DNA of 11,425 nucleotides. Origin: a bacterium. GTDB taxonomy: Bacteria > UBP15 > UBA6099 > JAJRTR01. The stretch spans positions 1 to 11,425 of the forward strand of contig JAJRTR010000179.1 of NCBI GenBank assembly GCA_024278215.1. Direction: 5' to 3'. The notes below the pieces were generated by a model. That model had not been told where the DNA came from. It saw only the letters and a program-made list of their open reading frames with translations, and made no database searches. A program made the translations under genes and the position numbers. Within the stretch, counting starts at the first letter, position 1. Every line of letters begins with the position of its first letter. This document shows, piece after piece, positions 1 to 11,425 of this stretch.

Positions 1-8
1 CGGCTGCT

Positions 9-157
9 ATTGTCCATAGCTGCGTTGTCGGCATAAAATCGTCCTCGACGTACTCTACAAGTACGTCTGCGAGGATTTTACACCTCCGCCTTGCTCTGAA
101 CAATTTCGCTCGACCTCGCTACGAACATAATTTTGCAGTTGGTTCTATTGTTCAGAG
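9..157. repeat. Inverted-repeat-rich element at the hypA 3' end
   Basis: The left part is a long imperfect palindrome centred near base 57. Arms ACGTACT (48-54) and AGTACGT (60-66) flank a 5-base loop. Arms TAAAATC (34-40) and GATTTTA (74-80) sit symmetrically outside them, and the outer parts (about 9-27 and 86-104) match more weakly. A second, perfect 11-bp inverted repeat pairs CTCTGAACAAT (94-104) with ATTGTTCAGAG (147-157). Its right arm lies over the last codons and stop of hypA. I infer a small palindromic repeat element of REP or MITE type, which could also end transcription of hypA. Only one copy is visible here, so dispersal in the genome is untested. Confidence 0.55.
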
Positions 158-513
158 ACGCCGATCTCCTCGACTTCGATAGAGTCGATAAGCAGTTCGC
201 GTCCCGAGATGAGATTTCCTTTTGCATCGCCACATTCAGGACATTCGTTAACGCCGTCCGGTGATTCGTATTCATTGCCGCAGGCGCCGCACCGCATAAC
301 TATCGGCTGTATCTCGATGTTAACTTCCGCGCCCGCCAGCCCGGGTTTATCTTCGGTAAGCATTTCATAGTAGAACCTGATATATTCAGGAATCACGCCT
401 GTCAGCCGCCCGAGTATGATCCTGATCGACTTCACGCGCAGCCCCCGCCCGGCGTTGTCGACTGCCTGCTCGACAGTTTTGACAATCTCCTGTGTGACTG
501 ACAACTCGTGCAT
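145..513 (-). CDS. hypA: Hydrogenase/urease nickel incorporation protein HypA
   Basis: The 122-residue product matches HypA in length and layout. HypA is a cytoplasmic nickel metallochaperone that works with the GTPase HypB to deliver Ni(II) to [NiFe]-hydrogenase, and in some bacteria to urease. The N-terminus begins Met-His-Glu-Leu-Ser, where the amino group and His2 bind nickel in this family. The zinc site is two CxxC motifs, Cys75/Cys78 and Cys91/Cys94. The frame stays open to an ATG at 588, but the ATG at 513 is chosen because His2 must follow the initiator Met; a GGAAAA stretch upstream is a weak ribosome-binding site. The glycerophosphodiesterase gene ends 46 bases upstream on the same strand, so co-transcription is possible. 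No other hyp or hydrogenase gene is in view; partners could lie left of the window. The stop codon overlaps an arm of the 94-157 inverted repeat. Confidence 0.95.
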   Translation of the reverse strand: MHELSVTQEIVKTVEQAVDNAGRGLRVKSIRIILGRLTGVIPEYIRFYYEMLTEDKPGLAGAEVNIEIQPIVMRCGACGNEYESPDGVNECPECGDAKGNLISGRELLIDSIEVEEIGVSEQ

Positions 514-539
514 CGATATCTTTTTTCCACATGAGATCA

Positions 540-554
540 TCCCGCCTTCCGGGA
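540..554 (-). other. Small hairpin between phosphodiesterase gene and hypA
   Basis: TCCCG (540-544) and CGGGA (550-554) form a perfect 5-bp GC-rich stem with a 5-base loop in the 46-base gap between the two minus-strand genes. No T-run follows on the minus strand, so it is not a canonical terminator. It could attenuate transcription or protect the upstream message, or be chance. Confidence 0.25.
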
Positions 555-559
555 ATCCA

Positions 560-1399
560 TCATTTCTTTTTCTGTTGCTTTTCGGCATACTTTTTCAGGA
601 TGCCGTCGAGCACGTCGGGGTAGTTGGTTATGATGCCGTCCACGCCGTATTTTATCAGGCGCTTCATCGTCACCGGATCGTCGACGGTGTAGACATTGAC
701 AGCGAGGCCGCGTTTGTGTGCCGCTTTGACAATTGTTCTTGTCACGGCGATATATCTCGGGTTGACGGCATCGGGGCGGCAGGCTTCGATGATCTTGTCG
801 AGGTCGGCTTTCGAGTTGATGTCGCCGACGAGCGCGCCTGTGTGGATTTCCGGGTTCAGCTCTTTGATCTTCAACAGGTATTCGTGGTGGAAGCTGGAGA
901 CGATAACCTGGTCGGTCATGTCGAGTTTCTCGACCATCTTCACAACTTTCTTTTCGCAGCCGTCGGATTTGATCTCGATGTTGACCTGGATTTTGTCTTT
1001 CGCCCATTTCAGGACTTCATATAATGTGGGGATGCGTTCGTCTTTAAACTTTTCAGACATCCAAGAACCGGCGTCGAGCTTGCGTATGTCGCTCAATTTC
1101 ATAAACCGGATTTTGTTCACGACCCCCGTTGTCCTGTCGGTGTCCGGGTCGTGTATGACGACGATGTGGCCGTCGAGAGTGCGGTGGATGTCGAGTTCGA
1201 TCATGTCCGCGCCGAGTTCGCGGGCTTTTTCAAATGAAGCCATAGTATTTTCAGGCGCGTAGGCGCTTGCGCCTCTGTGGGCGATGATCCTTGTTTTATA
1301 TTCGGGAGCGGGCAGCGCCCCGGCCGCCACGCAGTAAAGCAATGCCGCAGCCTGAAAACACATAATAGCCACAAGTAATTTCGAGGAATACTTTATCAT
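560..1399 (-). CDS. Secreted glycerophosphodiester phosphodiesterase (GDPD family)
   Basis: The 279-residue product is a GDPD-family TIM-barrel enzyme. The family hydrolyses glycerophosphodiesters such as glycerophosphocholine to glycerol-3-phosphate and an alcohol, for phosphate and carbon salvage. Signature residues are present: HRG (41-43), Glu50-Asn51, Glu68 and Asp70, His83-Asp84, the I-E-I-K strand with Glu142 and Lys144, and a C-terminal DGIITNYP-type segment (255-261). These cover the two catalytic histidines (41, 83) and the metal ligands. Residues 1-30 form a hydrophobic signal peptide. A Cys at 23 follows Leu-Leu-Tyr, a poor lipobox, so I favour a periplasmic form over a lipoprotein. 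The ATG at 1399 has a GGAGG site about 8 bases upstream. The aminotransferase gene ends 80 bases upstream on the same strand. UgpQ-type (cytoplasmic) is less likely because of the signal peptide; GlpQ-type is closer in location, but I assign no symbol. Confidence 0.93.
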   Translation of the reverse strand: MIKYSSKLLVAIMCFQAAALLYCVAAGALPAPEYKTRIIAHRGASAYAPENTMASFEKARELGADMIELDIHRTLDGHIVVIHDPDTDRTTGVVNKIRFMKLSDIRKLDAGSWMSEKFKDERIPTLYEVLKWAKDKIQVNIEIKSDGCEKKVVKMVEKLDMTDQVIVSSFHHEYLLKIKELNPEIHTGALVGDINSKADLDKIIEACRPDAVNPRYIAVTRTIVKAAHKRGLAVNVYTVDDPVTMKRLIKYGVDGIITNYPDVLDGILKKYAEKQQKKK

Positions 1400-1479
1400 T
1401 TAAAAGCCTCCGTATAAGGACATTCACAGGACCGTGCCGGGTATGCGCGTCAATACACCGCGAGCGGGAAATGGGGGCG

Positions 1480-2694
1480 TCACAGCCGCCTGTGTTTCGA
1501 GTAGTAGCCGACGATTTTGCGAACCGCCTCGATTACGTCTTCGACGTCGCTGTCTGTGATTCCGGCGGACATCGGGATGGAGATAGTGCGCTCTGAAATA
1601 AACTCCGCTTCAGGAAAATCACCGATGGAATAGCCGAAGGTTTTACTGTAATAGCTGTGCAGGTGCAGAGAAATGAAATGGATGCCTACGCCGATGTTTT
1701 CCGCCTGGAGCGCAGCCGCGAAAGTGTCGCGGTTGATACCGGCGGCATCGGGGTTTATCAATAATGTGTAAAGGTGCCGGGCGTGGCGGATGTTGTCCTG
1801 TTCGAGAGGCACGGTGATGAATTCCGAAGCCAGCGCGTCCGAATACCGCCGCCAGTGCCTGTCGCGCACGTCGAGCAGTTTGCCGATTCGCTCGAACTGG
1901 TGGATGCCCAGCGCCGCCTGTATATCCATCATGTTATATTTGAAACCGGGCATAAGTGTGTCGTATAGCTGGAATCCCTTATCGGTGTAACGCTTCCATG
2001 CGTTTTTGCTCATTCCGTGCAGACTGCGAATGCGCATCTGTTCGCATAGTTCCTTGCTGCCTGTTGTGACGATGCCGCCCTCACCCATAGCGAGATTCTT
2101 GGTCACATAAAAAGAAAAAGATGTTATGTCGCCGATAGAACCGATCTTCCGGCCTTTATAAACAGCCTCGATAGCGTGTGCGGCGTCTTCGATTATAAAG
2201 AGATTGTGCTCGTGCGCGAGTTCGAGAATTGGGTCCATATCGCAGGGCCGGCCTGCGAAATGAACAGGCATTATCGCCTTTGTTTTCGGTGTGATCTTTC
2301 GGGCGACGGCCTCGGGGTCGATGTTCATCGTGCGGCGGTCGATGTCGGCGAATACAGGGGTCGCGCCTGTATGCACGATAACATTTGCCGTGGCGGTGAA
2401 TGTCATGGGCGAAGTAATCACTTCGTCGCCCGGCCCTATGCCGAGCACTATGAGCGCGAGGTGCAGGCCGGCAGTACACGAGTTGAGAGCCAGCGCATAT
2501 TTCGCATTCGCGTAATCGGCGAACATATCTTCGAAACGCTGGGTCTTGGGACCGGTGCTCAGCCAGCCCGACCTGAGCGTATCCACTACTTCGTTTATAT
2601 CTTCATCGTCGATAAGAGGACTGCCGAAAACCAGGAAATCGTCCCTGACCGGCACACCGCCCTCGAGTGCAGGAATGTCACTAATGTTTGTCAT
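1480..2694 (-). CDS. DegT/DnrJ/EryC1/StrS family aminotransferase
   Basis: This is a 404-residue PLP-dependent aminotransferase of the DegT/DnrJ/EryC1/StrS family, which usually transaminates keto groups on nucleotide-linked sugars for O-antigen, lipid A or glycoprotein synthesis. Numbering from Met at 2694: SGWLSTGPK (42-50), the cofactor-pocket segment NSCTAGLH (71-78), EDAAHA (169-174) with Asp170 expected to contact the pyridine nitrogen, and SFYVTKNL (194-201) with Lys199 as the Schiff-base lysine, followed by GEGG. It resembles ArnB/PglE/PseC-type enzymes, but the substrate cannot be read from sequence. The frame opens 13 codons earlier (2733); I chose the ATG at 2694 because family proteins begin just before the ALEGG segment and the extension looks uncoded. 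Its best Shine-Dalgarno, AAAGGA, is rather far at about 14 bases. No sugar dehydratase or nucleotidyltransferase lies nearby. Confidence 0.93.
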   Translation of the reverse strand: MTNISDIPALEGGVPVRDDFLVFGSPLIDDEDINEVVDTLRSGWLSTGPKTQRFEDMFADYANAKYALALNSCTAGLHLALIVLGIGPGDEVITSPMTFTATANVIVHTGATPVFADIDRRTMNIDPEAVARKITPKTKAIMPVHFAGRPCDMDPILELAHEHNLFIIEDAAHAIEAVYKGRKIGSIGDITSFSFYVTKNLAMGEGGIVTTGSKELCEQMRIRSLHGMSKNAWKRYTDKGFQLYDTLMPGFKYNMMDIQAALGIHQFERIGKLLDVRDRHWRRYSDALASEFITVPLEQDNIRHARHLYTLLINPDAAGINRDTFAAALQAENIGVGIHFISLHLHSYYSKTFGYSIGDFPEAEFISERTISIPMSAGITDSDVEDVIEAVRKIVGYYSKHRRL

Positions 2695-2898
2695 AAAATA
2701 TGCCGCGTTCCTTTCATCATTACAGACACGCATACAGCAACGGCACTATACGAATACTTTCCGGATATTAATCTTATCATTGCGTGTGCCGGAAAACAAT
2801 TCCAGTGCATGATAATGGAGCTCCAGGCGGAATTATTTGAAATAAACCCCGTGTCGATTTGATACGCCGGAACAAATATTTAATAATGTCTTGAGTAC

Positions 2899-2927
2899 TT
2901 GATAAGGTGTTTAACGATCGGAATAAT
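2899..2927 (+). promoter_or_regulatory. Predicted sigma70-type promoter for the 3030 gene
   Basis: A -35 TTGATA (2899-2904, 5 of 6 to consensus) is separated by exactly 17 bases from a -10 AATAAT (2922-2927, 5 of 6). Transcription would begin near 2934, inside the left arm of the inverted repeat 2927-2940, and would leave a leader of roughly 95 bases before the 3030 start. The rest of the 335-base gap (2695-3029) should also hold the minus-strand aminotransferase promoter; a TATAGT hexamer on that strand near 2745 is only a weak candidate. I see no small gene in the gap. Confidence 0.5.
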
Positions 2928-2988
2928 CGTAACACTTTAGACATCTGAAGCAAAGTCGGGAATTCTTCACTTGGCTAAAGTGTTACGA
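2927..2988. repeat. Perfect 14-bp inverted repeat over the promoter start site
   Basis: TCGTAACACTTTAG (2927-2940) is matched without error by CTAAAGTGTTACGA (2975-2988), with 34 bases between the arms. The left arm begins on the last base of the predicted -10 element, and the right arm ends about 29 bases before the ribosome-binding site of the 3030 gene. It could be a pair of operator half-sites, a leader-RNA stem-loop, or the ends of a small mobile remnant. Position favours regulation of the downstream gene. Confidence 0.6.
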
Positions 2989-3016
2989 ATAATCAGTATT
3001 GCGGGGCGGAAATTGT

Positions 3017-3022
3017 GGAGGA
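3017..3022 (+). promoter_or_regulatory. Ribosome-binding site deciding the GTG start at 3030
   Basis: GGAGGA lies 7 bases before a GTG at 3030. The frame is open to an earlier GTG at 3015, but that one has no comparable site, and 3015-3029 contains this Shine-Dalgarno itself. Confidence 0.7.
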
Positions 3023-3029
3023 ATACATT

Positions 3030-3500
3030 GTGAAGCCGGAACCGGTAGACATACGGATAGACAGGGAAGGCCGCTGGTTTGCAAACGGTCGTGAGGTGAT
3101 AAACGAAAAGATTTACAAACTTTTCTGCGACTCGCTTGTTTGTGAAGACGGCAAGTACAAGATCAAAATAGATTACATGGAAAACCCGGTCGAAGTGGAA
3201 GACGCGCCGTTTTCCGTCAGGACAGTATTCGTGGAAAACACATCTGAAAACGAAGATATTATCTGGCTTGTCCTGAACGATCAGCGCCGTGTCCGGCTCG
3301 ACCCGGAAACACTTCGCGCACCGGAACCGGACGCGCTTTATTGCACGATCGACAACGAAAAAAGGCTCGATGCCCGCTTTTCAGCCGGAGCACTGACGCA
3401 GATCGGCTCTATGATGGAGTTCGACGAAAACAGGGGAATATTTATATTGCTGCTCAACGGAAACGAATATTCCTTCCAGGTGGGCCGGTCGGGTGAATGA
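3030..3500 (+). CDS. DUF1285-like conserved protein
   Basis: This is a 156-residue cytoplasmic protein with no signal peptide or membrane segment. The N-terminal half resembles DUF1285: a short beta segment IRIDREGRWFANG (8-20), a helix around IYKLFCDSL (28-36), and the segment VEVEDAPF (54-61), followed by a second beta-rich half that ends near LLNGNEYSF (141-149). DUF1285 proteins have no established biochemical role. The start is GTG, chosen over GTG at 3015 because of the GGAGGA site at 3017-3022. The gene stands alone: the next plus-strand gene begins 144 bases after its stop. Its leader carries the 14-bp inverted repeat at 2927-2988, so it may be individually regulated. The family call rests on recalled motif similarity and is moderate. 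Confidence 0.75.
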   Translation: MKPEPVDIRIDREGRWFANGREVINEKIYKLFCDSLVCEDGKYKIKIDYMENPVEVEDAPFSVRTVFVENTSENEDIIWLVLNDQRRVRLDPETLRAPEPDALYCTIDNEKRLDARFSAGALTQIGSMMEFDENRGIFILLLNGNEYSFQVGRSGE

Positions 3501-3531
3501 ATCGGGCTATTATCGTAATGCTTTTAACCCA

Positions 3532-3561
3532 TTGCACCGGGAAGAGTCTACAATATATAAT
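3532..3561 (+). promoter_or_regulatory. Possible promoter for the FecR-domain gene
   Basis: A perfect TATAAT (3556-3561) stands 84 bases before the 3645 start. The best -35 at 18-base spacing is TTGCAC (3532-3537), which keeps only the TTG of the consensus. The -10 is convincing and the -35 weak, so an activator may be needed, or the match may be chance in an AT-rich patch. Confidence 0.35.
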
Positions 3562-3644
3562 TGGCCCTGGTTATGTGTGCGCGGCCCACGCTATACTGCA
3601 CTGAACAAGAAAACTACAATGACATAAAATACTCAAGGTGAAAT

Positions 3645-5027
3645 ATGAATAAACAAAAGACATACTGTTTCAGGCCATACCTGTTTGTTCTCGCAGTGCT
3701 GACGGCGGTCCTTTTTAATTGGACGACGACGGAAGCAGTCCGGGCCGAAGACACGCCGCTGGCGACTGTCACAGTCATAGATGGCGATGGCGCGCAGATG
3801 CAGCGCAACGGCGCGGCGGACTGGGAGCCGGCAAGCGAAGAGATGGATATATATCAGGGCGACAAAATAAAAACAGACAAAGTCACAAAAGTCGAAGCAC
3901 AGCTTCCCGACAACAGCATAGTGCGAATCAGTGAACTATCGAGTATTACCTTCGGTGTGCCGGAGATTTCCGGAACGAAACTTGATATGGAACAGGGCCG
4001 CATGTGGTGCAAGCTGAAAAAACTGAAGACGGGCGTAACGTTCGAGGTCGTCACACCAACGGTAACAGCCGGAGTGCGCGGCACAACTTTCTGGGTGGAT
4101 GCGCAGAACCCGGAGGAAAACATCATCGGTGTCGAGGACGGCCAGGTCGAGGCGGTACGCGGCCGCAAACGCATTATGCTCAATCGTCTGATGCGCATAT
4201 CCGCGCTCCGGGACCGGCTCGAAGAAGCAGACTACTTCGACCCGGAGAAAAGACAGCGATGGGAGCAGTTCACCACCAGGATCATCAAAAAACGTATGGA
4301 GCGTTTCAGGGAAGTGGTCGGCGAATACCGCGACAACTCCGTCGAAGCTGCTGAAAAGGGGGCCGAACTTGTAAGGAATATCACCGAACTGGACAAAAAA
4401 ACACGCGAACTTGTCGCAGGCCTCGAGGTGACGATGAAAAAACAGGAACGACTTACGCAAGAGACCGATAAGCTGGTGGGAAAAGCGAAACAGGTGAAAA
4501 AAAACAGACAGACAAGACTTAAGAAATATCAACTCCGCCGGTTGAAATCGAAAGTTGACAGGCTGATAAAAACTTCCGCCGAAGTTGCCGACGATTTTAA
4601 AACTTCCAAAGAAGCATTCACAAAACATTTCCTGTCAGTGCAGGAATATCTCCAGCAGACGCGGGAACTCGACACGAAAATCTCCGCATTGAAAAAACAG
4701 CAGAATGAACTGAAAAGGAAAACCGAGCGGAAAAAGAAGCGTCGCGAGTTCGACCCGGACTGGCCGCAACTCCAGAAGATACATGCTGTAATCGAAAAGA
4801 GAGTCGCCGAAGTCATCGAGAACACGGAACGCAGCGATAAGATTCTATCCCGCTTCGGCGAAGCAACGCAGGAAAAGGCTGTTACACTGTTCGAGCATAC
4901 GGAAAAACTCAAAACCTATATTGATGAAAACAAAACGAGAATCAGGGAGTCGGTCAAATCACTCGGGAAAACCCATGCGAAACTCGTAGTGCTGCAACAG
5001 GCTATCGACAAAGAGTTGGAGAAATAG
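3645..5027 (+). CDS. Secreted FecR-domain protein with long coiled-coil tail
   Basis: The 460-residue product has a signal peptide (hydrophobic 11-25, likely cleavage after Val-Arg-Ala at 34), then a FecR-type beta domain (about 39-175) with a clear AGVRGTTFWV signature (142-151) and a following IGVEDGQVEAV strand (161-171). Residues about 185-460 are highly charged, Lys/Glu/Arg-rich and helical, with heptad-like stretches typical of coiled coils. Classical FecR is a membrane-spanning anti-sigma regulator with a cytoplasmic N-terminus; here the domain follows a signal peptide, so it should be periplasmic or surface-exposed, and no sigma factor or TonB receptor lies nearby. Such free-standing FecR proteins are usually uncharacterised and may have an envelope-structural or ligand-binding role. 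The ATG has an AAGGTG site 5 bases upstream. The stop is followed by 231 bases before the next gene. Confidence 0.85.
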   Translation: MNKQKTYCFRPYLFVLAVLTAVLFNWTTTEAVRAEDTPLATVTVIDGDGAQMQRNGAADWEPASEEMDIYQGDKIKTDKVTKVEAQLPDNSIVRISELSSITFGVPEISGTKLDMEQGRMWCKLKKLKTGVTFEVVTPTVTAGVRGTTFWVDAQNPEENIIGVEDGQVEAVRGRKRIMLNRLMRISALRDRLEEADYFDPEKRQRWEQFTTRIIKKRMERFREVVGEYRDNSVEAAEKGAELVRNITELDKKTRELVAGLEVTMKKQERLTQETDKLVGKAKQVKKNRQTRLKKYQLRRLKSKVDRLIKTSAEVADDFKTSKEAFTKHFLSVQEYLQQTRELDTKISALKKQQNELKRKTERKKKRREFDPDWPQLQKIHAVIEKRVAEVIENTERSDKILSRFGEATQEKAVTLFEHTEKLKTYIDENKTRIRESVKSLGKTHAKLVVLQQAIDKELEK

Positions 5028-5102
5028 TAGTGCCGGTCATTATCTTTACTGAACGATATTGAGCTATAGCGCAGTTTTCTTTGTACCTGCAATATTCATC
5101 GC

Positions 5103-5122
5103 TTCCACCGCCCCCGGTGGGA
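5103..5122. terminator. Possible terminator hairpin after the FecR-domain gene
   Basis: CCACCG (5105-5110) and CGGTGG (5115-5120) form a perfect 6-bp stem around a CCCC loop. It extends to 8 pairs (5103-5122) when a G-U wobble is allowed on the plus-strand RNA. A second small stem, GTCGG/CCGAC, follows at 5127-5145. No T-run follows directly, so an intrinsic terminator is uncertain, but the position between two plus-strand genes fits. Apart from these stems and a GATAAT (5205-5210) without a good -35, the 5028-5258 gap shows nothing I recognise. Confidence 0.35.
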
Positions 5123-5258
5123 ATGCGTCGGTTGATAGCGCCGACATTCACAAAATACTGTTTTTCAGCGACAACTATTTTTCGCGAATGCGATTTAAGA
5201 AGCTGATAATATGCTAATATATTGCAACAATAAATCTCGAAAGGAATTTCATTTATCT

Positions 5259-6278
5259 ATGAGAAAACTGATTATTACTATGTTTGTTATAACAATCGGA
5301 CTCTCCGTCGCCGCCGGACCGGCGCGAGCCGAGGACGAGGAAATGGGCGATGTCATGTTGTCGGTCATGCAGATTGACCTCAACAATAAGTGCAGCCTGA
5401 TATGGTGGACGGAAGATGTATGGGCATACATGACAAACGAGGACACCAGTACCGATGCGCTCTACGGTTATTTCATGATGAAAAGCCTGCTCAAAGACTA
5501 TATTTTCTTCTCGGCGATGAACCCGCAGACGCAAAGCGCGTGCACAAACATCTTCGGCACTCCGCTTATCAGGAATGAGGATGGAGTCGGTGCCGCCGCT
5601 GTGCCCACTCACCAATCGTTACAGACTATTATGCCCGGTCTGATCGCTTTTCCCAACAAAGACCTGATGGACCGGCAGGTGATCTCGGATTCGACAAAAG
5701 AATTTTCTGTCGAGATCAAATATGAAGACAGGAAAACCGCGGTCGATTATTCTTTCGATGTACCCCCCGACTATCCTGATGCTGTCTACGATGCTGTCGA
5801 AGCGATGAAGCAGGTAGACATGGCGGACATCGGTTCGATGGACGAAGATGCGTTCTTATTCAAGCAGCTTGCGCCGCGCATGAAGACAGACATCCGCACA
5901 GGTATTATCGCCGCACCGATTTCAAATGAATTCTTCGACAGTTATTTCAAACAGGATGAAGAGCTGATGAATGATCCGGAAGCCATGGCACAGGCACAGA
6001 ATCTTGTGCGCGATTACAGCTTTTTCGTGCTGATACCTGCCGACGACAACCGCACCCGGATCGAAGAAGCGGCAAAAAGCGCTGTCGCTATAGATACAGC
6101 GGGGAATGTCGTAACGGTCAACACAGATGCGAAAAAACTCTTTATGAGTGCCATTGGCACAGGCGGTGATGTTTTTGAAATACTCGTTTTTCCGAAGCTC
6201 GGACGCTACGGCACGGTAAATCTTGTGCTACGCGACCCCGAGTCGAAAAACCTTGCGTCCTTTACTTGGACTGACTGA
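5259..6278 (+). CDS. Secreted protein of unknown family
   Basis: I do not recognise this 339-residue protein. It starts with a clear signal peptide: Met-Arg-Lys-Leu, hydrophobic 5-18, and an Ala-Arg-Ala cleavage site at 22-24 followed by acidic residues, so it should be periplasmic or exported. The mature part has no further membrane segment, is acidic, and contains two cysteines (Cys45, Cys95) that could form a disulfide. A Trp-rich patch sits near 49-56. The frame is open from an ATG at 5211, but the ATG at 5259 is chosen because it gives a proper signal peptide and has AAGGA upstream (5241-5245, a long 13-base spacing). It lies between the secreted FecR-domain gene and the MBL hydrolase, with 122 bases following, so it may be transcribed alone. 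Confidence 0.7.
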   Translation: MRKLIITMFVITIGLSVAAGPARAEDEEMGDVMLSVMQIDLNNKCSLIWWTEDVWAYMTNEDTSTDALYGYFMMKSLLKDYIFFSAMNPQTQSACTNIFGTPLIRNEDGVGAAAVPTHQSLQTIMPGLIAFPNKDLMDRQVISDSTKEFSVEIKYEDRKTAVDYSFDVPPDYPDAVYDAVEAMKQVDMADIGSMDEDAFLFKQLAPRMKTDIRTGIIAAPISNEFFDSYFKQDEELMNDPEAMAQAQNLVRDYSFFVLIPADDNRTRIEEAAKSAVAIDTAGNVVTVNTDAKKLFMSAIGTGGDVFEILVFPKLGRYGTVNLVLRDPESKNLASFTWTD

Positions 6279-6292
6279 TCGACTGACTGATT
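6269..6292. repeat. 12-bp tandem repeat across a stop codon
   Basis: GACTGACTGATC (6269-6280) is followed directly by GACTGACTGATT (6281-6292), then by further GATT tetramers. The unit is itself built of CTGA tetramers. The TGA stop of the upstream gene (6276-6278) lies in the first copy. This is a slippage-prone simple repeat that could vary the C-terminus between strains. Confidence 0.6.
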
Positions 6293-6400
6293 GATTGCTT
6301 CCTTTTTATAGAACCGGCACGACATAATGAGCGCTTTCGCCGACAACATTTTTTGACTTTCGCGGGATCAGTAACTATATTTGTCCCTGTAGTTTTGTAA

Positions 6401-7330
6401 ATGTTCAGCAGGGGACATACTGTTTTGGTCGAAGAAATACCTCTCGAGTTCAAGCCCGGAAAAGCGCCTGCCGCTCCCCCGACCTCCGCTCTCTCTATGT
6501 CATGGGCAGGCACGGCGGCCTTCACTTTAAAATACAAAACAACTACTCTTCTTGTCGATCCTTTTGTAACACGTCCACAGCTGCCCGGCATTTTGTTTCT
6601 CCGGCAGCGCGTTAACGAAGAACTATGCGCGGAGGTTTTTCCACGCGCGGATCACATCCTTGTCGGACACAGCCACTACGACCACCTGCTGGACGTACCC
6701 TGCATCGCACTGAAGACCGGCGCAGTTGTGCATGGTTCCACGTCCACCGCGCGAGTGTGCCGCGCCGCAGGCATGAACTGCGGCCGGGTCCACGAAATAA
6801 CCCCCTGGCAACCTGTCGTTTGCGGCGAGTTCATAGCAACTTTCATTCCCGGAAAACACGGCAAAGCGCTTCGTGGCAGGATACCTTTCCCCGGCGACAT
6901 TGTTGACAAACCGAATCTCCCGATGCACGCCGCCGCCTATAAACTCGGCGGCATGTTCGGGCTGCTGATCGAGGCGGGCGGACTCAGGATATACCATTGC
7001 GGCAGCGGCGACCTCATCGACGATGAAGTAGCAAAAATCGGCAAAGTAGACGTGCTGATCGCCTGCCTCGCGGGACGCCAGAAGTCTCCCGATTACCTGA
7101 AACGCCTTGTTGCCCCCCTCCATCCGTCCTATTTGATTCCCACTCATTACGACGACTTTTTCCGTCCGCTCAGGCATGTCTTCCGTTTCATCCGCGGCCT
7201 CGGACTCGAAGACTTTCTCGATGAGCGAAAACAGGTTTGTCCGGATGTGAAACTTATCATGCCCGACTTCTTCGATACTCTCGTTTTCGATACAGAAAAA
7301 AACAGGCTGCTCGAAGAACAGCCGGGTTGA
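6401..7330 (+). CDS. MBL-fold metallo-hydrolase
   Basis: The 309-residue product is a metallo-beta-lactamase-fold hydrolase. Visible landmarks: the entry strand SWAGTAAFTL (34-43), LLVDPF (50-55), the binuclear metal motif HSHYDH (90-95), a further His at 153 (Gly-Lys-His-Gly), a YHCGSGD segment with Asp204 (198-204), and the closing His in PTHYDD (247-252). The arrangement is closest to UlaG-like and NAPE-PLD-like hydrolases, which act on lactones or phosphodiesters; the substrate is unknown. There is no signal peptide, so it should be cytoplasmic. The start is uncertain: the ATG at 6401 has no Shine-Dalgarno, whereas a TTG at 6425 has AGGGGA 9 bases before it; the domain is complete in either case. 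The next gene starts 11 bases after the stop, so the two are probably co-transcribed. Confidence 0.88.
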   Translation: MFSRGHTVLVEEIPLEFKPGKAPAAPPTSALSMSWAGTAAFTLKYKTTTLLVDPFVTRPQLPGILFLRQRVNEELCAEVFPRADHILVGHSHYDHLLDVPCIALKTGAVVHGSTSTARVCRAAGMNCGRVHEITPWQPVVCGEFIATFIPGKHGKALRGRIPFPGDIVDKPNLPMHAAAYKLGGMFGLLIEAGGLRIYHCGSGDLIDDEVAKIGKVDVLIACLAGRQKSPDYLKRLVAPLHPSYLIPTHYDDFFRPLRHVFRFIRGLGLEDFLDERKQVCPDVKLIMPDFFDTLVFDTEKNRLLEEQPG

Positions 7331-7341
7331 TCAAAATATAT

Positions 7342-7977
7342 ATGATTTTCATACCACCGACATCACTTATCCGGGCCGAACTGAAAGGTGCCGGGATAAC
7401 GCTGAAACGTCTGTTGCGCAGATTCGGCCCGGGCCGCACAATTGTCGTGCTGGCAGGCATCGCCGCGGCACAGGCGATCGGCGAACCATGGCGCGAACTC
7501 GGCCCTCCAGCAGACCGCAAAGAAGCGCTCTCGCGCCGACAGCTCGGTGCCGCCGTTCTCCTCGAACGCGAACTCCGCAAGCACACTTCGCACCGGGTCG
7601 CTCGAAAAATAACCTCCGAAATTGTGCGAAAATCATCTGTCTTTTTCCTCTCACTGTACGTACCCATCCTGAAAAAGGACAAACTGCTCTCAATGCCGGA
7701 TGAAAAAAGAAAGAAATACCTGCGAAGAATTCAGGAGAAGTTTTTCAACGCCGACGCCGATCTGAAAATAGTTCGCGAAGAACAATTATTGATGCCTGTG
7801 AGTCGATGCCGTTTTGTAGAATTACTAGAAGCAATCGGCGAACGGGACATGGCCCCGATGTTCTGCGCCGGTGACAGGATTTTCTTCGATACACACCAGC
7901 CGGACATTACACTCGAACGCACCGCAACTCTCTCCGAAGGCGGCGCGCTCTGCGATTTCCGGTTTCGCTGGAAATAA
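7342..7977 (+). CDS. L-2-amino-thiazoline-4-carboxylic acid hydrolase-like protein
   Basis: The 211-residue product resembles the L-2-amino-thiazoline-4-carboxylate (ATC) hydrolase family. The founding enzyme opens the ATC ring to N-carbamoyl-L-cysteine during bacterial L-cysteine production from thiazolines, but most members are uncharacterised. The diagnostic part is the C-terminus: Cys156 before a helix, MFCAGD (173-178), and the ending SEGGALCDFRF (198-208) with Cys204. The N-terminal 100 residues are basic and helical. The frame is open from 7237 inside the upstream gene; the ATG at 7342 is chosen because it avoids that 94-base overlap, although its Shine-Dalgarno is weak. It sits 11 bases after the MBL hydrolase, and two adjacent hydrolases suggest a shared catabolic or detoxification route. 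Its 3' end converges on the minus-strand aminotransferase 117 bases away; no clear terminator is seen between them. Confidence 0.8.
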   Translation: MIFIPPTSLIRAELKGAGITLKRLLRRFGPGRTIVVLAGIAAAQAIGEPWRELGPPADRKEALSRRQLGAAVLLERELRKHTSHRVARKITSEIVRKSSVFFLSLYVPILKKDKLLSMPDEKRKKYLRRIQEKFFNADADLKIVREEQLLMPVSRCRFVELLEAIGERDMAPMFCAGDRIFFDTHQPDITLERTATLSEGGALCDFRFRWK

Positions 7978-8094
7978 TTGGCTCACCAGCATATTTCATC
8001 AATGCGAGTAGAAAGACAGTTGTCGTTTCCAAAATTGTCAGTTTAACCGCCGGCGCACTATAATATTTCCACCCACAACAGATTAGTGAAGTGG

Positions 8095-9348
8095 CTATCT
8101 TTTCATATAAAAATCCTTCAGCGTCCCGACTACGTGCGCGATCATGTCTACGGTGAGATCGGGGTACTGCGGCAGTGCGAGTATACTGTCACAGATCGTT
8201 TCAGAAACGGGTAAGGAGCCAGGACCGTAGCCAAGGTAGTCGAAGATTATCTGCCTGTGCAGCGATAGCGGATAATAAATCATGCAACCGATGCCGTTGT
8301 CTCGCAGGTGCTGCATAGTTCTGTCGCGGTTGGGCAGCCTGATATCGAATGTGTTGTAGGTATGATAAATACCCTCGGGTTCCGCCGGAAGAGCGATGGT
8401 GTTTTCGGGCAGTGCACCGTCCGCGGGCACCTCATCCGTGCCGATCACGTCGATTCCCGCTTCAGGCATCATCTCCCTGAATGTCTTTATGTATTCTAAC
8501 CCGTTTTTACGCCGTTTTTCAAGCCATTCGTCCAAGTGTTTGAATTTTACGGCAAGAATGGCAGCCTGCATGGAGTCGAGCCTGCTGTTGTAGCCGAACA
8601 TATCATGAAAATACTTCTTTTTGCTCGCTCCGTGAACATGCAGCGATTTCGCCACCTGGTAAATGTCTTCGTCGCTGGTGACGATCATGCCGCCGTCACC
8701 TGCGCCGCCGAGATTTTTACTCGGGTAGAACGAAAAACATCCAACATCACCTGCCGCTCCCGCCTGTATCATTTCTGACCCGTCTTCCGACCCGTTTATT
8801 CTGATCCTTGATCCCTGCGCTTGAGCCGCATCTTCTATTATCTTTAGGCCATACTCTTCTTTCAATTCAAGAAATCCGTTCATATCGGCCATGAGGCCGT
8901 ATAAATGCACGGGCATGATACCCTTGACTCTTCCGCCGGTTTTTTTGTTTATGAGACCGTTCTCGCCCGTTTCACACTCGTTTTCAATAAATTTTCTTAC
9001 CGCATCGGGATCAAGGTTGTATGTGACGGGAGAAATATCGCAGAAAACGGGTCGGCCCCCCGCCGCCCACACCGATTCGGGAGTTGCAATAAAAGTATAG
9101 GGCGTCGTGATGACTTCGTCGCCCGCACCTATGCCCGCCGCGCGCAACGCTATTATCAGCGCGTCTGTGCCGCTGGCGACGCCCAGCGCGTATTCTGTCC
9201 CGGTGTATTTCCTGACAGATTCCTCGAAATCCTTAACCGGTTGGCCGAGTACGAAATTGCATTGTTCGACAACTCCTCCGATTGCATCCATAATTTCTTC
9301 TTTTAGTGGTTGATAACAAGCCTTCAGGTCAAGAAACGGGACATTCAA
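8095..9348 (-). CDS. DegT/DnrJ/EryC1/StrS family aminotransferase (second copy)
   Basis: This 417-residue enzyme is a nucleotide-sugar aminotransferase of the same family as the 1480-2694 product but clearly diverged. Numbering from 9348: the opening NVPFLDLKA (2-10), the pocket segment ASGTDAL (58-64), IEDAAQAQG (171-179) with Asp173, SFYPSKNLG (206-214) with Lys211 as the PLP lysine, and a YYPLSLHRQ segment (358-366) typical of WbpE/FdtB/QdtB-like members. I choose a TTG start at 9348: it gives the exact family N-terminus and has AGAGGT 7 bases upstream. The frame is open to a GTG at 9399 (434 residues), but that extension is encoded largely by a 19-bp tandem repeat and lacks a good Shine-Dalgarno. 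The gene is transcribed alone, converging with the ATC hydrolase-like gene. Likely role: amino-sugar synthesis for a surface glycan. Confidence 0.93.
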   Translation of the reverse strand: MNVPFLDLKACYQPLKEEIMDAIGGVVEQCNFVLGQPVKDFEESVRKYTGTEYALGVASGTDALIIALRAAGIGAGDEVITTPYTFIATPESVWAAGGRPVFCDISPVTYNLDPDAVRKFIENECETGENGLINKKTGGRVKGIMPVHLYGLMADMNGFLELKEEYGLKIIEDAAQAQGSRIRINGSEDGSEMIQAGAAGDVGCFSFYPSKNLGGAGDGGMIVTSDEDIYQVAKSLHVHGASKKKYFHDMFGYNSRLDSMQAAILAVKFKHLDEWLEKRRKNGLEYIKTFREMMPEAGIDVIGTDEVPADGALPENTIALPAEPEGIYHTYNTFDIRLPNRDRTMQHLRDNGIGCMIYYPLSLHRQIIFDYLGYGPGSLPVSETICDSILALPQYPDLTVDMIAHVVGTLKDFYMKR

Positions 9349-9355
9349 TATTGTT

Positions 9356-9361
9356 ACCTCT
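9356..9361 (-). promoter_or_regulatory. Ribosome-binding site deciding the TTG start at 9348
   Basis: On the minus strand AGAGGT lies 7 bases before the TTG at 9348. With the family-typical N-terminus that follows, this favours TTG over the upstream GTG (9399) and ATG (9393), neither of which has a comparable site. Confidence 0.6.
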
Positions 9362-9398
9362 TTTCCGAGTACATCTTCATTTTCCGAACACATCTTCA
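9361..9398. repeat. 19-bp tandem duplication upstream of the aminotransferase
   Basis: TTTTCCGAGTACATCTTCA (9361-9379) and TTTTCCGAACACATCTTCA (9380-9398) are adjacent direct copies with two differences. They lie in the 5' leader of the minus-strand aminotransferase, right behind its ribosome-binding site. The unit is not a multiple of three, which argues that this stretch is leader rather than coding sequence. Confidence 0.8.
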
Positions 9399-9487
9399 CT
9401 GACAGTTAAATATAAGATACATCCAGAATATTTTACAACAAAAGGGAGTACAATATCACTGATTGGACAAACTTTATCCTGATTATG

Positions 9488-9621
9488 ATGTCCGAAATGC
9501 GATAAATTCACCTTTGTCTTTCACCAACACAATTCAGCAAAGAGCCAGAAAAACAAGATGACATGGCGTGTTATAAATTCAGTTATCGACATATACTGAT
9601 ATGTCCTTTAATGCGATAATT
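9488..9621 (+). promoter_or_regulatory. Repeated motif and palindrome before the nuclease-like gene
   Basis: An approximately 21-base motif, ATGTCC, 2-4 variable bases, then ATGCGATAA, occurs at 9488-9508 and again at 9601-9621 in the same orientation, 113 bases apart. The second copy overlaps a perfect palindrome, GACATAT (9588-9594), a 4-base spacer, and ATATGTC (9599-9605). These sites lie 36-169 bases before the start at 9657 in an AT-rich 308-base gap (9349-9656). They are plausible operator sites for this gene, although the binding protein is not identified. The rest of the gap shows no small gene or clear promoter hexamers. Confidence 0.4.
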
Positions 9622-9656: not shown

Positions 9657-10859
9657 ATGATAAATTGCAGATGCTGCCGGCCCATTCCGAAATACGATGA
9701 TTTCGAGTCTCTCGAATCTTATAATAAGGCATTAAGAAGTGAGTTCATGGAATTGATGAAGAACTGTCCCGCAATGAAAATTTATCTTCCTGATGAGCTT
9801 GTTGAAAAGGGTTATCCATTCGGAAAATCTAAAGAAACGGAATCTCCAATAATCGACGCTGCCGGTCACTTATCAACTATATTTAATTTGTATTGTTTCG
9901 GAACACTGCCTAACTACACTTTACCGGTTCATCGGTTTTTGCTTGATGATAATGGTGAGATCAAACCTGAGGTCACTAAACAATATAGAAAAGACTACAG
10001 GGAAACATGGATAAACAACAAGAATTCAAAAGGTGAATTTAAAAAAGATTATAAAAGATGCCAAGATTTAGTCGAAAAGCTGTCTCAAAAGTACAATTAT
10101 AAACACAAGAAGGATGAATTTGTAGAAATGTGCGCTCACCACCACTATTTCCAAATATACTATGGGAAGATAGTAGAAATATTGCTTGCATATATGCTCG
10201 AAAATAATGGATACCATATAGATGGACTTGCGGCCCTGGCAAGTTGTCCGGCAGGTGATATTCTTGCGAACAAGGATAATAAGACATATCATATCGAAGT
10301 AAAGTATATTGGAATACAAAATGAAGAATTTCTCACAATGCAACACTGCTCTTTAGACAAACGTGGGTTCTCCATTGGTCCATACAAATATCTGAGATAT
10401 TTTGTAGGGAAAATAAGAGAAGCGGCTGAACAATTGAAGAAATTTACGAAATCCGATACGGACATAGTAAAAATTGCGGCAATTGTATTTCATCCGGATG
10501 TATGGGACGGTATGAAAATAGCTCTGTCTGAGAAAAGTAAAATTTATTCGGCATGTTTTCTTCAAGAACTATACATAAAAGAAATAAAAAACAACATGAA
10601 GTATTTCTGTAATGCAACAGATAGAACCTGTAAGATTGCATATGTTAATGAGATTGAGGAATATTGTAGCACATTAAATGATTTGTTGTTTTCAAGTAGA
10701 GTATTAGATGCCGTGTGGGCATTCAAAGTCGATGCAAGGGCGTTTGAATTCCAGGCTTCTTTTGGTAATGTGAAATTCATATATTCAGGACTCCTGACCT
10801 GGGAGAAGGGTAAAAAAGAGGGCATGGCGAGAGAGGCACACAAAAAAGCGTATGAATAA
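9657..10859 (+). CDS. Unclassified protein with PD-(D/E)XK nuclease-like signature
   Basis: I do not recognise this 400-residue protein. It contains a stretch fitting a PD-(D/E)XK nuclease core: Glu174 in a helix, a Pro-Ala-Gly-Asp turn with Asp201, and Glu214-Val-Lys216 in a predicted strand. This spacing (D-x12-E-x-K) is the usual restriction-endonuclease-like metal site. The N-terminal ~150 residues are Lys-rich with clustered cysteines (4, 6, 7) and may bind DNA; a His triplet sits at 161-163. The C-terminal ~150 residues have no motif I can name. No signal peptide or membrane span is evident. The gene is markedly AT-rich, with many AAA, AAT and ATA codons, unlike the neighbours, and is followed 111 bases later by a transposase-like gene, which suggests transfer. 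No methyltransferase is within the window, so an orphan or solitary restriction enzyme, or an unrelated defence or mobile-element nuclease, is possible. The nuclease call is inference. Confidence 0.65.
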   Translation: MINCRCCRPIPKYDDFESLESYNKALRSEFMELMKNCPAMKIYLPDELVEKGYPFGKSKETESPIIDAAGHLSTIFNLYCFGTLPNYTLPVHRFLLDDNGEIKPEVTKQYRKDYRETWINNKNSKGEFKKDYKRCQDLVEKLSQKYNYKHKKDEFVEMCAHHHYFQIYYGKIVEILLAYMLENNGYHIDGLAALASCPAGDILANKDNKTYHIEVKYIGIQNEEFLTMQHCSLDKRGFSIGPYKYLRYFVGKIREAAEQLKKFTKSDTDIVKIAAIVFHPDVWDGMKIALSEKSKIYSACFLQELYIKEIKNNMKYFCNATDRTCKIAYVNEIEEYCSTLNDLLFSSRVLDAVWAFKVDARAFEFQASFGNVKFIYSGLLTWEKGKKEGMAREAHKKAYE

Positions 10860-10970
10860 AGGGAAAAAGTTGAGTGGAGAGAAAGATAACAAAATATGAC
10901 GGGACGCTACAAAGGGAAAAAAGAAATGATACAATATAGGGAACACATACAGCAGTGAGTGGGGGAAGAT

Positions 10971-11425
10971 ATGCCACAGATGATATTGCCGTTGTTTCCG
11001 GCGGAGGCCACCGCGATTAATGAACATCTGGCGTTCTGTAAAAAAGACGGCCAGGTATACTATCTGCAAGGCAGTATGCCGGTGTTTTGCCATGCGGAGA
11101 ATGACATTGCATCGTTCCGGTTGTTTACCAGCCAGTTGTACATCAACGGGAATTGCAAGCAGAGGCAGATCGTGGACGCATTCGGGGTGACGCCGATCAG
11201 CGTTAAAAGAAGTGTGAAAAAATTGCAGGAAGAAGGGCCGGAAGCGTTTTTCAAGGAGCGCCGCAAGGGCACCGGCTCTGTGAAGCCGCGGGTGATGACG
11301 CCGGAGGTGGTGAGAAGAGCCGAGGCGTTGCTGGCAGAGGGAGAGAGTGTGCGTGATGTAGCGCAGGCGCTGGGGATCAGGGCGGACACGCTGAAAAAGG
11401 CCATCACGTCGGGCCGCGTGAAAAC
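10971..11425 (+). CDS. Transposase-like protein, N-terminal part (runs off window)
   Basis: An open frame begins at the ATG at 10971, with GGGGG 5-9 bases upstream, and continues 151 codons to the window end without a stop. The visible part resembles the N-terminus of a DDE-type transposase family: a short beta-rich lead, then a first helix-turn-helix near residues 66-88 (RQIVDAFGVTPISVKRSVKK region), a basic linker, and a second helix-turn-helix near 125-148 (VRDVAQALGIRADTLKKAI region). Two DNA-binding helix-turn-helix units before the catalytic domain fit end-recognition by a transposase. The catalytic residues lie outside the window. Base composition is much more GC-rich than in the nuclease-like gene just upstream. 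No terminal inverted repeat can be identified in 10860-10970, which is strongly purine-rich. The family assignment is from recalled similarity. Confidence 0.7.
   Translation, partial: MPQMILPLFPAEATAINEHLAFCKKDGQVYYLQGSMPVFCHAENDIASFRLFTSQLYINGNCKQRQIVDAFGVTPISVKRSVKKLQEEGPEAFFKERRKGTGSVKPRVMTPEVVRRAEALLAEGESVRDVAQALGIRADTLKKAITSGRVK

What the first reader, a model, noticed from the sequence alone, without database searches (positions are those of the whole stretch)
9657..10859. AT-rich orphan gene with a PD-(D/E)XK-like core of no recognised family
The sequence shows Glu174, Asp201 and Glu214-x-Lys216 with the spacing of a restriction-type nuclease site, inside a 400-residue protein whose N- and C-terminal thirds match nothing I know. 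Base composition differs sharply from both flanks and a transposase-like gene follows. It may be a solitary restriction or defence nuclease. The lack of a methyltransferase in view is unusual for a restriction enzyme.
Basis: partly seen in the sequence, partly recalled or inferred. Interest (0 to 1): 0.6.

Follow-up and report, generated by a model that had tools for sequence, protein, structure and literature searches.

The report
Unnamed solitary PD-(D/E)XK nuclease family
A foreign-looking, AT-rich bacterial gene encodes a member of a rare, unnamed protein family that carries a complete DNA-cutting (PD-(D/E)XK) active site conserved in relatives from other phyla; a jumping element has inserted at the very end of the gene, and what the enzyme cuts and why is unknown.

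Summary
The ORF at 9657-10859 (+) is AT-rich (35.5% GC against 50.7% for window 1-9399) and carries E174, D201 and E214-x-K216. Two full-length relatives were found in sampled whole genomes of two other phyla (308 and 322 aa; BLASTP 8e-20 and 3e-23 to this protein, 8e-62 to each other). Both keep G170-K171, E174, D201-I202, E214-V215-K216 and a following EAAxQL helix. The best weak matches outside the family (archaeal-virus Hjc, PHROG Holliday-junction resolvase, YraN, an Mrr-like protein) fall on this same stretch.

Corrections: (1) it is not a strict orphan but a small, sporadic family absent from Pfam, NCBIfam, PADLOC and PHROGs. (2) The 'transposase-like gene' belongs to an IS-like element that inserted into the 3' end of this gene; residues 376-400 are read from the element, after the last family-conserved position (G370). 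(3) Defence is a guess: no methyltransferase or recognised defence system lies beside any member. A possible N-terminal metal site (C4, C6, C37, H71) is new. The fold is unconfirmed (single-sequence AlphaFold, pLDDT 37-39). Verdict: new family in a known superfamily, moderate interest.

The parts
9657..10783 (+). Native part of the gene (residues 1-375 and two bases of codon 376) of the unnamed PD-(D/E)XK-like family
   Evidence: ORF and RBS; full-length homologs
9657..9872 (+). N-terminal module with C4-x-C6, C37-P38 and H71, invariant in all four known members: possible metal site (inferred)
10011..10139 (+). Lys/Asn-rich insertion, about residues 119-161, absent from both full-length relatives
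10155..10208 (+). Predicted first core helix with motif I, G170-K171-x2-E174
10254..10304 (+). Motif II (D201-I202) and motif III (E214-V215-K216) on two predicted strands
10419..10436 (+). EAAEQL (residues 255-260), conserved as EAAxQL on the next predicted helix; candidate motif IV
10784..10859 (+). IS-derived tail of the ORF (residues 376-400 and stop), not native to the family
10785..11425 (+). Left part of an IS-like element (terminal repeat TCAGGACTCCTGACCTGG; transposase ORF from 10971 with two HTH motifs), cut off by the contig end
9400..9656 (+). AT-rich upstream gap sharing the foreign composition; palindrome GACATAT-4-ATATGTC at 9588-9605 of unknown role

Best explanation
The gene encodes a metal-dependent phosphodiesterase (nuclease) of the PD-(D/E)XK superfamily. 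It belongs to a small uncatalogued family of about 300-375 residues: an N-terminal module with an invariant C-x-C, C-P and His (possible metal site), an Hjc/Mrr-like catalytic core (motif I E174, motif II D201, motif III E214-x-K216, likely motif IV EAAxQL) and a C-terminal extension. By analogy with the superfamily, E174, D201 and E214 would bind Mg2+ and K216 would position the attacking water to cut a DNA (or RNA) backbone. The family is patchy across phyla and this copy has foreign composition, so it most likely arrived by horizontal transfer as a single gene. An IS-like element later inserted within the last few codons and replaced the extreme C-terminus, downstream of every conserved position. 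Shown: the motif, its conservation, family membership, the IS junction, composition. Inferred: fold, catalysis, metal binding, transfer, residual activity. Unknown: substrate and biological role; a solitary defence nuclease is the leading guess (rival A).
For: Full-length homologs in two other phyla with all four residues invariant. Weak matches from different libraries all land on residues 167-223 and on PD-(D/E)XK proteins: PHROG Holliday-junction resolvase E=0.016, YraN E=0.18, SIRV4 Hjc 41% over 49 aa, an Mrr-like protein E=0.004. D-to-E spacing is 13-14 residues against 13 in Hjc 1gef (D33, E46, K48; PMC1913061). The motif is rare by chance. Helix and strand order around the motifs in the low-confidence model is compatible with the fold. 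Composition. IS junction.
Against: No significant match to any curated nuclease family or solved structure. Profile-profile comparison with phage resolvases was weak. Both AlphaFold models are of low confidence, so clustering of the residues in space is untested. Only three full-length sequences underlie the conservation claim. The IS insertion may have impaired this copy.
Confidence: 0.82

Rival explanations
1. Role rival A: it is a solitary defence nuclease, for example a modification-dependent restriction enzyme that cuts invading DNA and needs no methyltransferase.
For: Foreign composition; sporadic spread; single-gene context without methyltransferase; Mrr-like local similarity; in one genome an N-terminal remnant sits just downstream of an HNH nuclease gene, in another a weak WYL-like gene precedes it.
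Against: No member lies in a recognised defence island; no PADLOC match above chance; the neighbours differ between genomes; not found on the held plasmids or phages.
Confidence: 0.4
2. Role rival B: it is a structure-specific or repair nuclease (junction or flap cutting), as the similarity to Hjc and Holliday-junction resolvases suggests.
For: The strongest local similarities are to Hjc-type resolvases.
Against: Similarity covers only the shared catalytic motif stretch, which Hjc has in common with the whole superfamily; the large N- and C-terminal regions are unlike small resolvases; patchy distribution is unusual for housekeeping repair.
Confidence: 0.2
3. Copy-level rival: the window copy is a decaying pseudogene whose product lost function when the IS inserted.
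For: The IS replaces the natural C-terminus; a relative in another genome survives only as an N-terminal fragment, so loss does occur.
Against: The reading frame is open through all 375 native codons, the active site is intact, and the junction lies after the last aligned family position.
Confidence: 0.3
4. The motif is coincidental and the protein is not a nuclease.
For: No curated family or structure match; weak scores throughout.
Against: Shuffles give the motif 0.76% of the time and real open frames 0.5%; in addition all four residues are invariant among members only 26-36% identical.
Confidence: 0.07

Closest known systems
Hjc-type Holliday junction resolvases (SIRV4 ORF33; archaeal Hjc 1gef)
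   Same: Order and spacing of E (motif I), D (motif II), E-V-K (motif III); 41% identity over 49 residues to SIRV4 Hjc; D-to-E spacing 13 as in 1gef
   Different: Resemblance ends at the motif stretch; this family is 300-375 aa with N- and C-terminal regions that Hjc (about 120 aa) lacks
Mrr-like restriction endonuclease domain
   Same: A weak match of residues 170-218 (40% identity, E=0.004) to an Mrr-like catalytic segment
   Different: That segment has E-C-K where this family has E-V-K, and no Mrr Pfam match was found here; the label 'Mrr-like' for that hit rests on my reading of its sequence
YraN / UPF0102 (PF02021)
   Same: Weak alignment over residues 167-216
   Different: Far below cut-off; YraN is a small single-domain protein and the genome has its own separate YraN
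PHROG 6591 (phage Holliday junction resolvase)
   Same: Residues 170-217 aligned to profile 7-56
   Different: E=0.016 only; neither of the other family members matches it

Membership tests
PD-(D/E)XK nuclease superfamily | Motif II Asp and motif III (D/E)-x-K, preceded by a motif I acidic residue | tested here: met
   E174, D201, E214-x-K216 present and invariant in three full-length members
[quoted passage not shown]
   Two AlphaFold runs gave pLDDT 37.5 and 38.8; secondary-structure order is compatible only in part. No fold search was run on such models.
PD-(D/E)XK nuclease superfamily | Significant profile match to a known member family (needed to file it under a named family; the superfamily itself often escapes sequence methods, PMC1913061) | tested here: not met
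   Nothing above cut-off in Pfam, NCBIfam, PHROGs, PADLOC or PDB
PD-(D/E)XK nuclease superfamily | Divalent-metal-dependent nucleic acid cleavage | not testable with these tools
   Needs a bench assay
Type II restriction-modification system | Cognate DNA methyltransferase gene adjacent | tested here: not met
   None in the window nor within the fetched 10.9, 19.9 and 19.0 kb around the relatives by reading their ORFs; contig ends limit the view on one side in three of four loci
Holliday junction resolvase (Hjc) | Small (about 120-140 aa) protein with a match to the Hjc family | tested here: not met
   300-375 aa, no Pfam Hjc match
Mrr restriction endonuclease | Match to the Mrr catalytic Pfam model | tested here: not met
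   No match at E up to 5
Known anti-phage defence protein | Match to a PADLOC model and defence neighbourhood | tested here: not met
   Only DpdA at E=0.0055 over residues 125-183 of one member, matched by no other member

The most novel reading that the evidence does not exclude
A previously undescribed, horizontally spread single-gene defence nuclease family with a Cys/His metal-binding N-terminal recognition module coupled to a PD-(D/E)XK core, acting without a methyltransferase.
Probability: 0.25. Interest if true: 0.6.

Novelty: new member of a known kind. Interest (0 to 1): 0.38.

Why it matters
It adds a family to the PD-(D/E)XK superfamily that current libraries miss, with a concrete set of invariant residues (C4, C6, C37, H71, E174, D201, E214, K216) and two intact relatives that can be expressed directly. 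If it proves to be a methyltransferase-free defence nuclease, it would be a new single-gene system; if it cuts branched DNA, it would extend resolvase-like cores to a larger architecture.

Tried and rejected
Pattern-based scans of viral contigs (8) and genome contigs (2) found no relatives. Searches used alignments padded with made-up variant rows (A2, A3), only to steer which peptide patterns were scanned; they carry no evidence. The GDI-x10-IEVK pattern scan of viral contigs returned many phage resolvase-like genes and chance frames but no relative. tblastn of plasmids and phages with three family members found none; one Spirosoma plasmid hit (E=0.009) lies in a gene annotated as a serine hydrolase and was discarded. 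DpdA (E=0.006), UDP-glucose dehydrogenase and NuoE matches were dismissed: each is weak and not shared by the other family members. Finding the other flank of the IS insertion: right ends exist at C13, C114 and C16, but no target duplication or reading frame assigns one to this locus.

Full report
What is there. The ORF at 9657-10859 (+) is open and starts with a well-placed ribosome-binding site. Its native part has 35.5% GC and the 257-bp gap before it 33.1%, against 50.7% for the rest of the window upstream and 52.1% for what follows (profile). The window is the whole of contig C157 of a 207-contig assembly, so the neighbourhood ends where the mobile element begins.

The IS junction. The C-terminal residues (about 370-400) recur at six other places in the same genome. 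Aligned at DNA level, the shared sequence begins at TTCAGGACTCCTGACC, window 10784/10785, and an internally deleted copy on C14 shows the matching inverted right end. The downstream ORF from 10971 has helix-turn-helix domains and weak IS630/IS481 transposase matches. The element therefore inserted into this gene, and residues 376-400 plus the stop codon are the element's. Several contigs in this assembly end inside copies of this element. The two intact relatives end at or soon after the aligned position F369-G370, so the insertion probably removed only a few native residues.

A family, not an orphan. No library gave a confident match. Relatives came from six-frame searches of evenly drawn whole genomes: 0 of 395 in the phylum of a Bacteroidales genome, 1 of 398 in that of a Clostridia genome, 0 of 387 in that of a Verrucomicrobia genome, and 2 of 395 in that of a Geobacteraceae genome using the two-sequence profile; within the window's own phylum only the window's genome, of 7. 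Sensitivity differs between these searches (single sequence in the first three, profile in the last), and an empty result is not proof of absence. The full-length relatives are L244:8706-9632 (308 aa) and L250:8580-9548 (322 aa); a fourth, L251:64-384, keeps only the N-terminal part, about 95 residues aligned. Pairwise BLASTP: 8e-20, 3e-23 and 8e-62.

The active site. Across the three full-length members the invariant columns include G170, K171, E174, D201, I202, E214, V215, K216, I218, G219 and E255-A256-A257-x-Q259-L260. These map to motifs I-III, and probably IV, of PD-(D/E)XK enzymes as described in PMC1913061, where Hjc (1gef) uses E9, D33, E46, K48 and D61. D-to-E spacing is 13, 14 and 14 here and 13 in Hjc. 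About 55 of 375 positions are invariant, so four named positions being all invariant by luck has a probability near 5e-4 if columns were independent, on top of the 0.8% chance of the motif itself. Weak outside matches (PHROG resolvase, YraN, SIRV4 Hjc, an Mrr-like protein) overlap the same residues. Each is insignificant or marginal alone; their agreement on one superfamily and one stretch is the argument.

Other anatomy. C4-x-C6, C37-P38 and H71 are invariant in all four members, including the fragment; of 13 cysteines in the native protein only these three are kept. A metal-binding module is a reasonable inference but untested. The window protein has an extra Lys/Asn-rich stretch of about 40 residues (119-161) before the core.

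Context. The relatives sit in different surroundings: after a 115-aa WYL-like gene and a SEC-C gene at a contig end (L244), between hemL and a TPR gene (L250; hemL is my reading of the sequence), and, for the fragment, just downstream of an HNH nuclease gene (L251). No DNA methyltransferase was seen by reading the ORFs listed. The intact relatives' genes differ little from their surroundings in GC (45.0 vs 45.9%; 41.1 vs 44.2%), so foreign composition is a feature of the window copy (and of the fragment, 35.5 vs 45.7%) rather than of all members.

Verdict. The protein is best described as a member of a new, sparse family in a very well-populated superfamily. Catalysis is likely, the fold is unconfirmed, and the biological role is open, with solitary defence nuclease the leading guess on circumstantial grounds only.

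Noticed in passing
window 10785-11425; own genome C13, C14, C16, C114, C138, C150, C160, C166, C205: IS-like element with terminal repeat TCAGGACTCCTGACCTGG; several contigs end inside it, and C14 holds an internally deleted (MITE-like) copy of about 300 bp with both ends, apparently without a target duplication.
   Followed up: partly
L251:64-384 and 398-823 (-): N-terminal fragment of the family ending at a stop, directly downstream of an HNH endonuclease gene; a possible decayed two-nuclease unit.
   Followed up: partly
L244:9778-10125 (-): 115-aa WYL-like protein (weak match) without a recognised HTH, just upstream of the intact relative.
   Followed up: partly
window 9588-9605: Palindrome GACATAT-ACTG-ATATGTC in the AT-rich gap upstream of the gene; could be an operator or chance.
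   Followed up: no
L250:15724-16293 (+): Protein with two treble-clef-like repeats (W-x-C-x-x-G-H-E-W ... C-x-Y-C), about 6 kb from the relative; no match in PADLOC and no convincing NCBIfam match.
   Followed up: no
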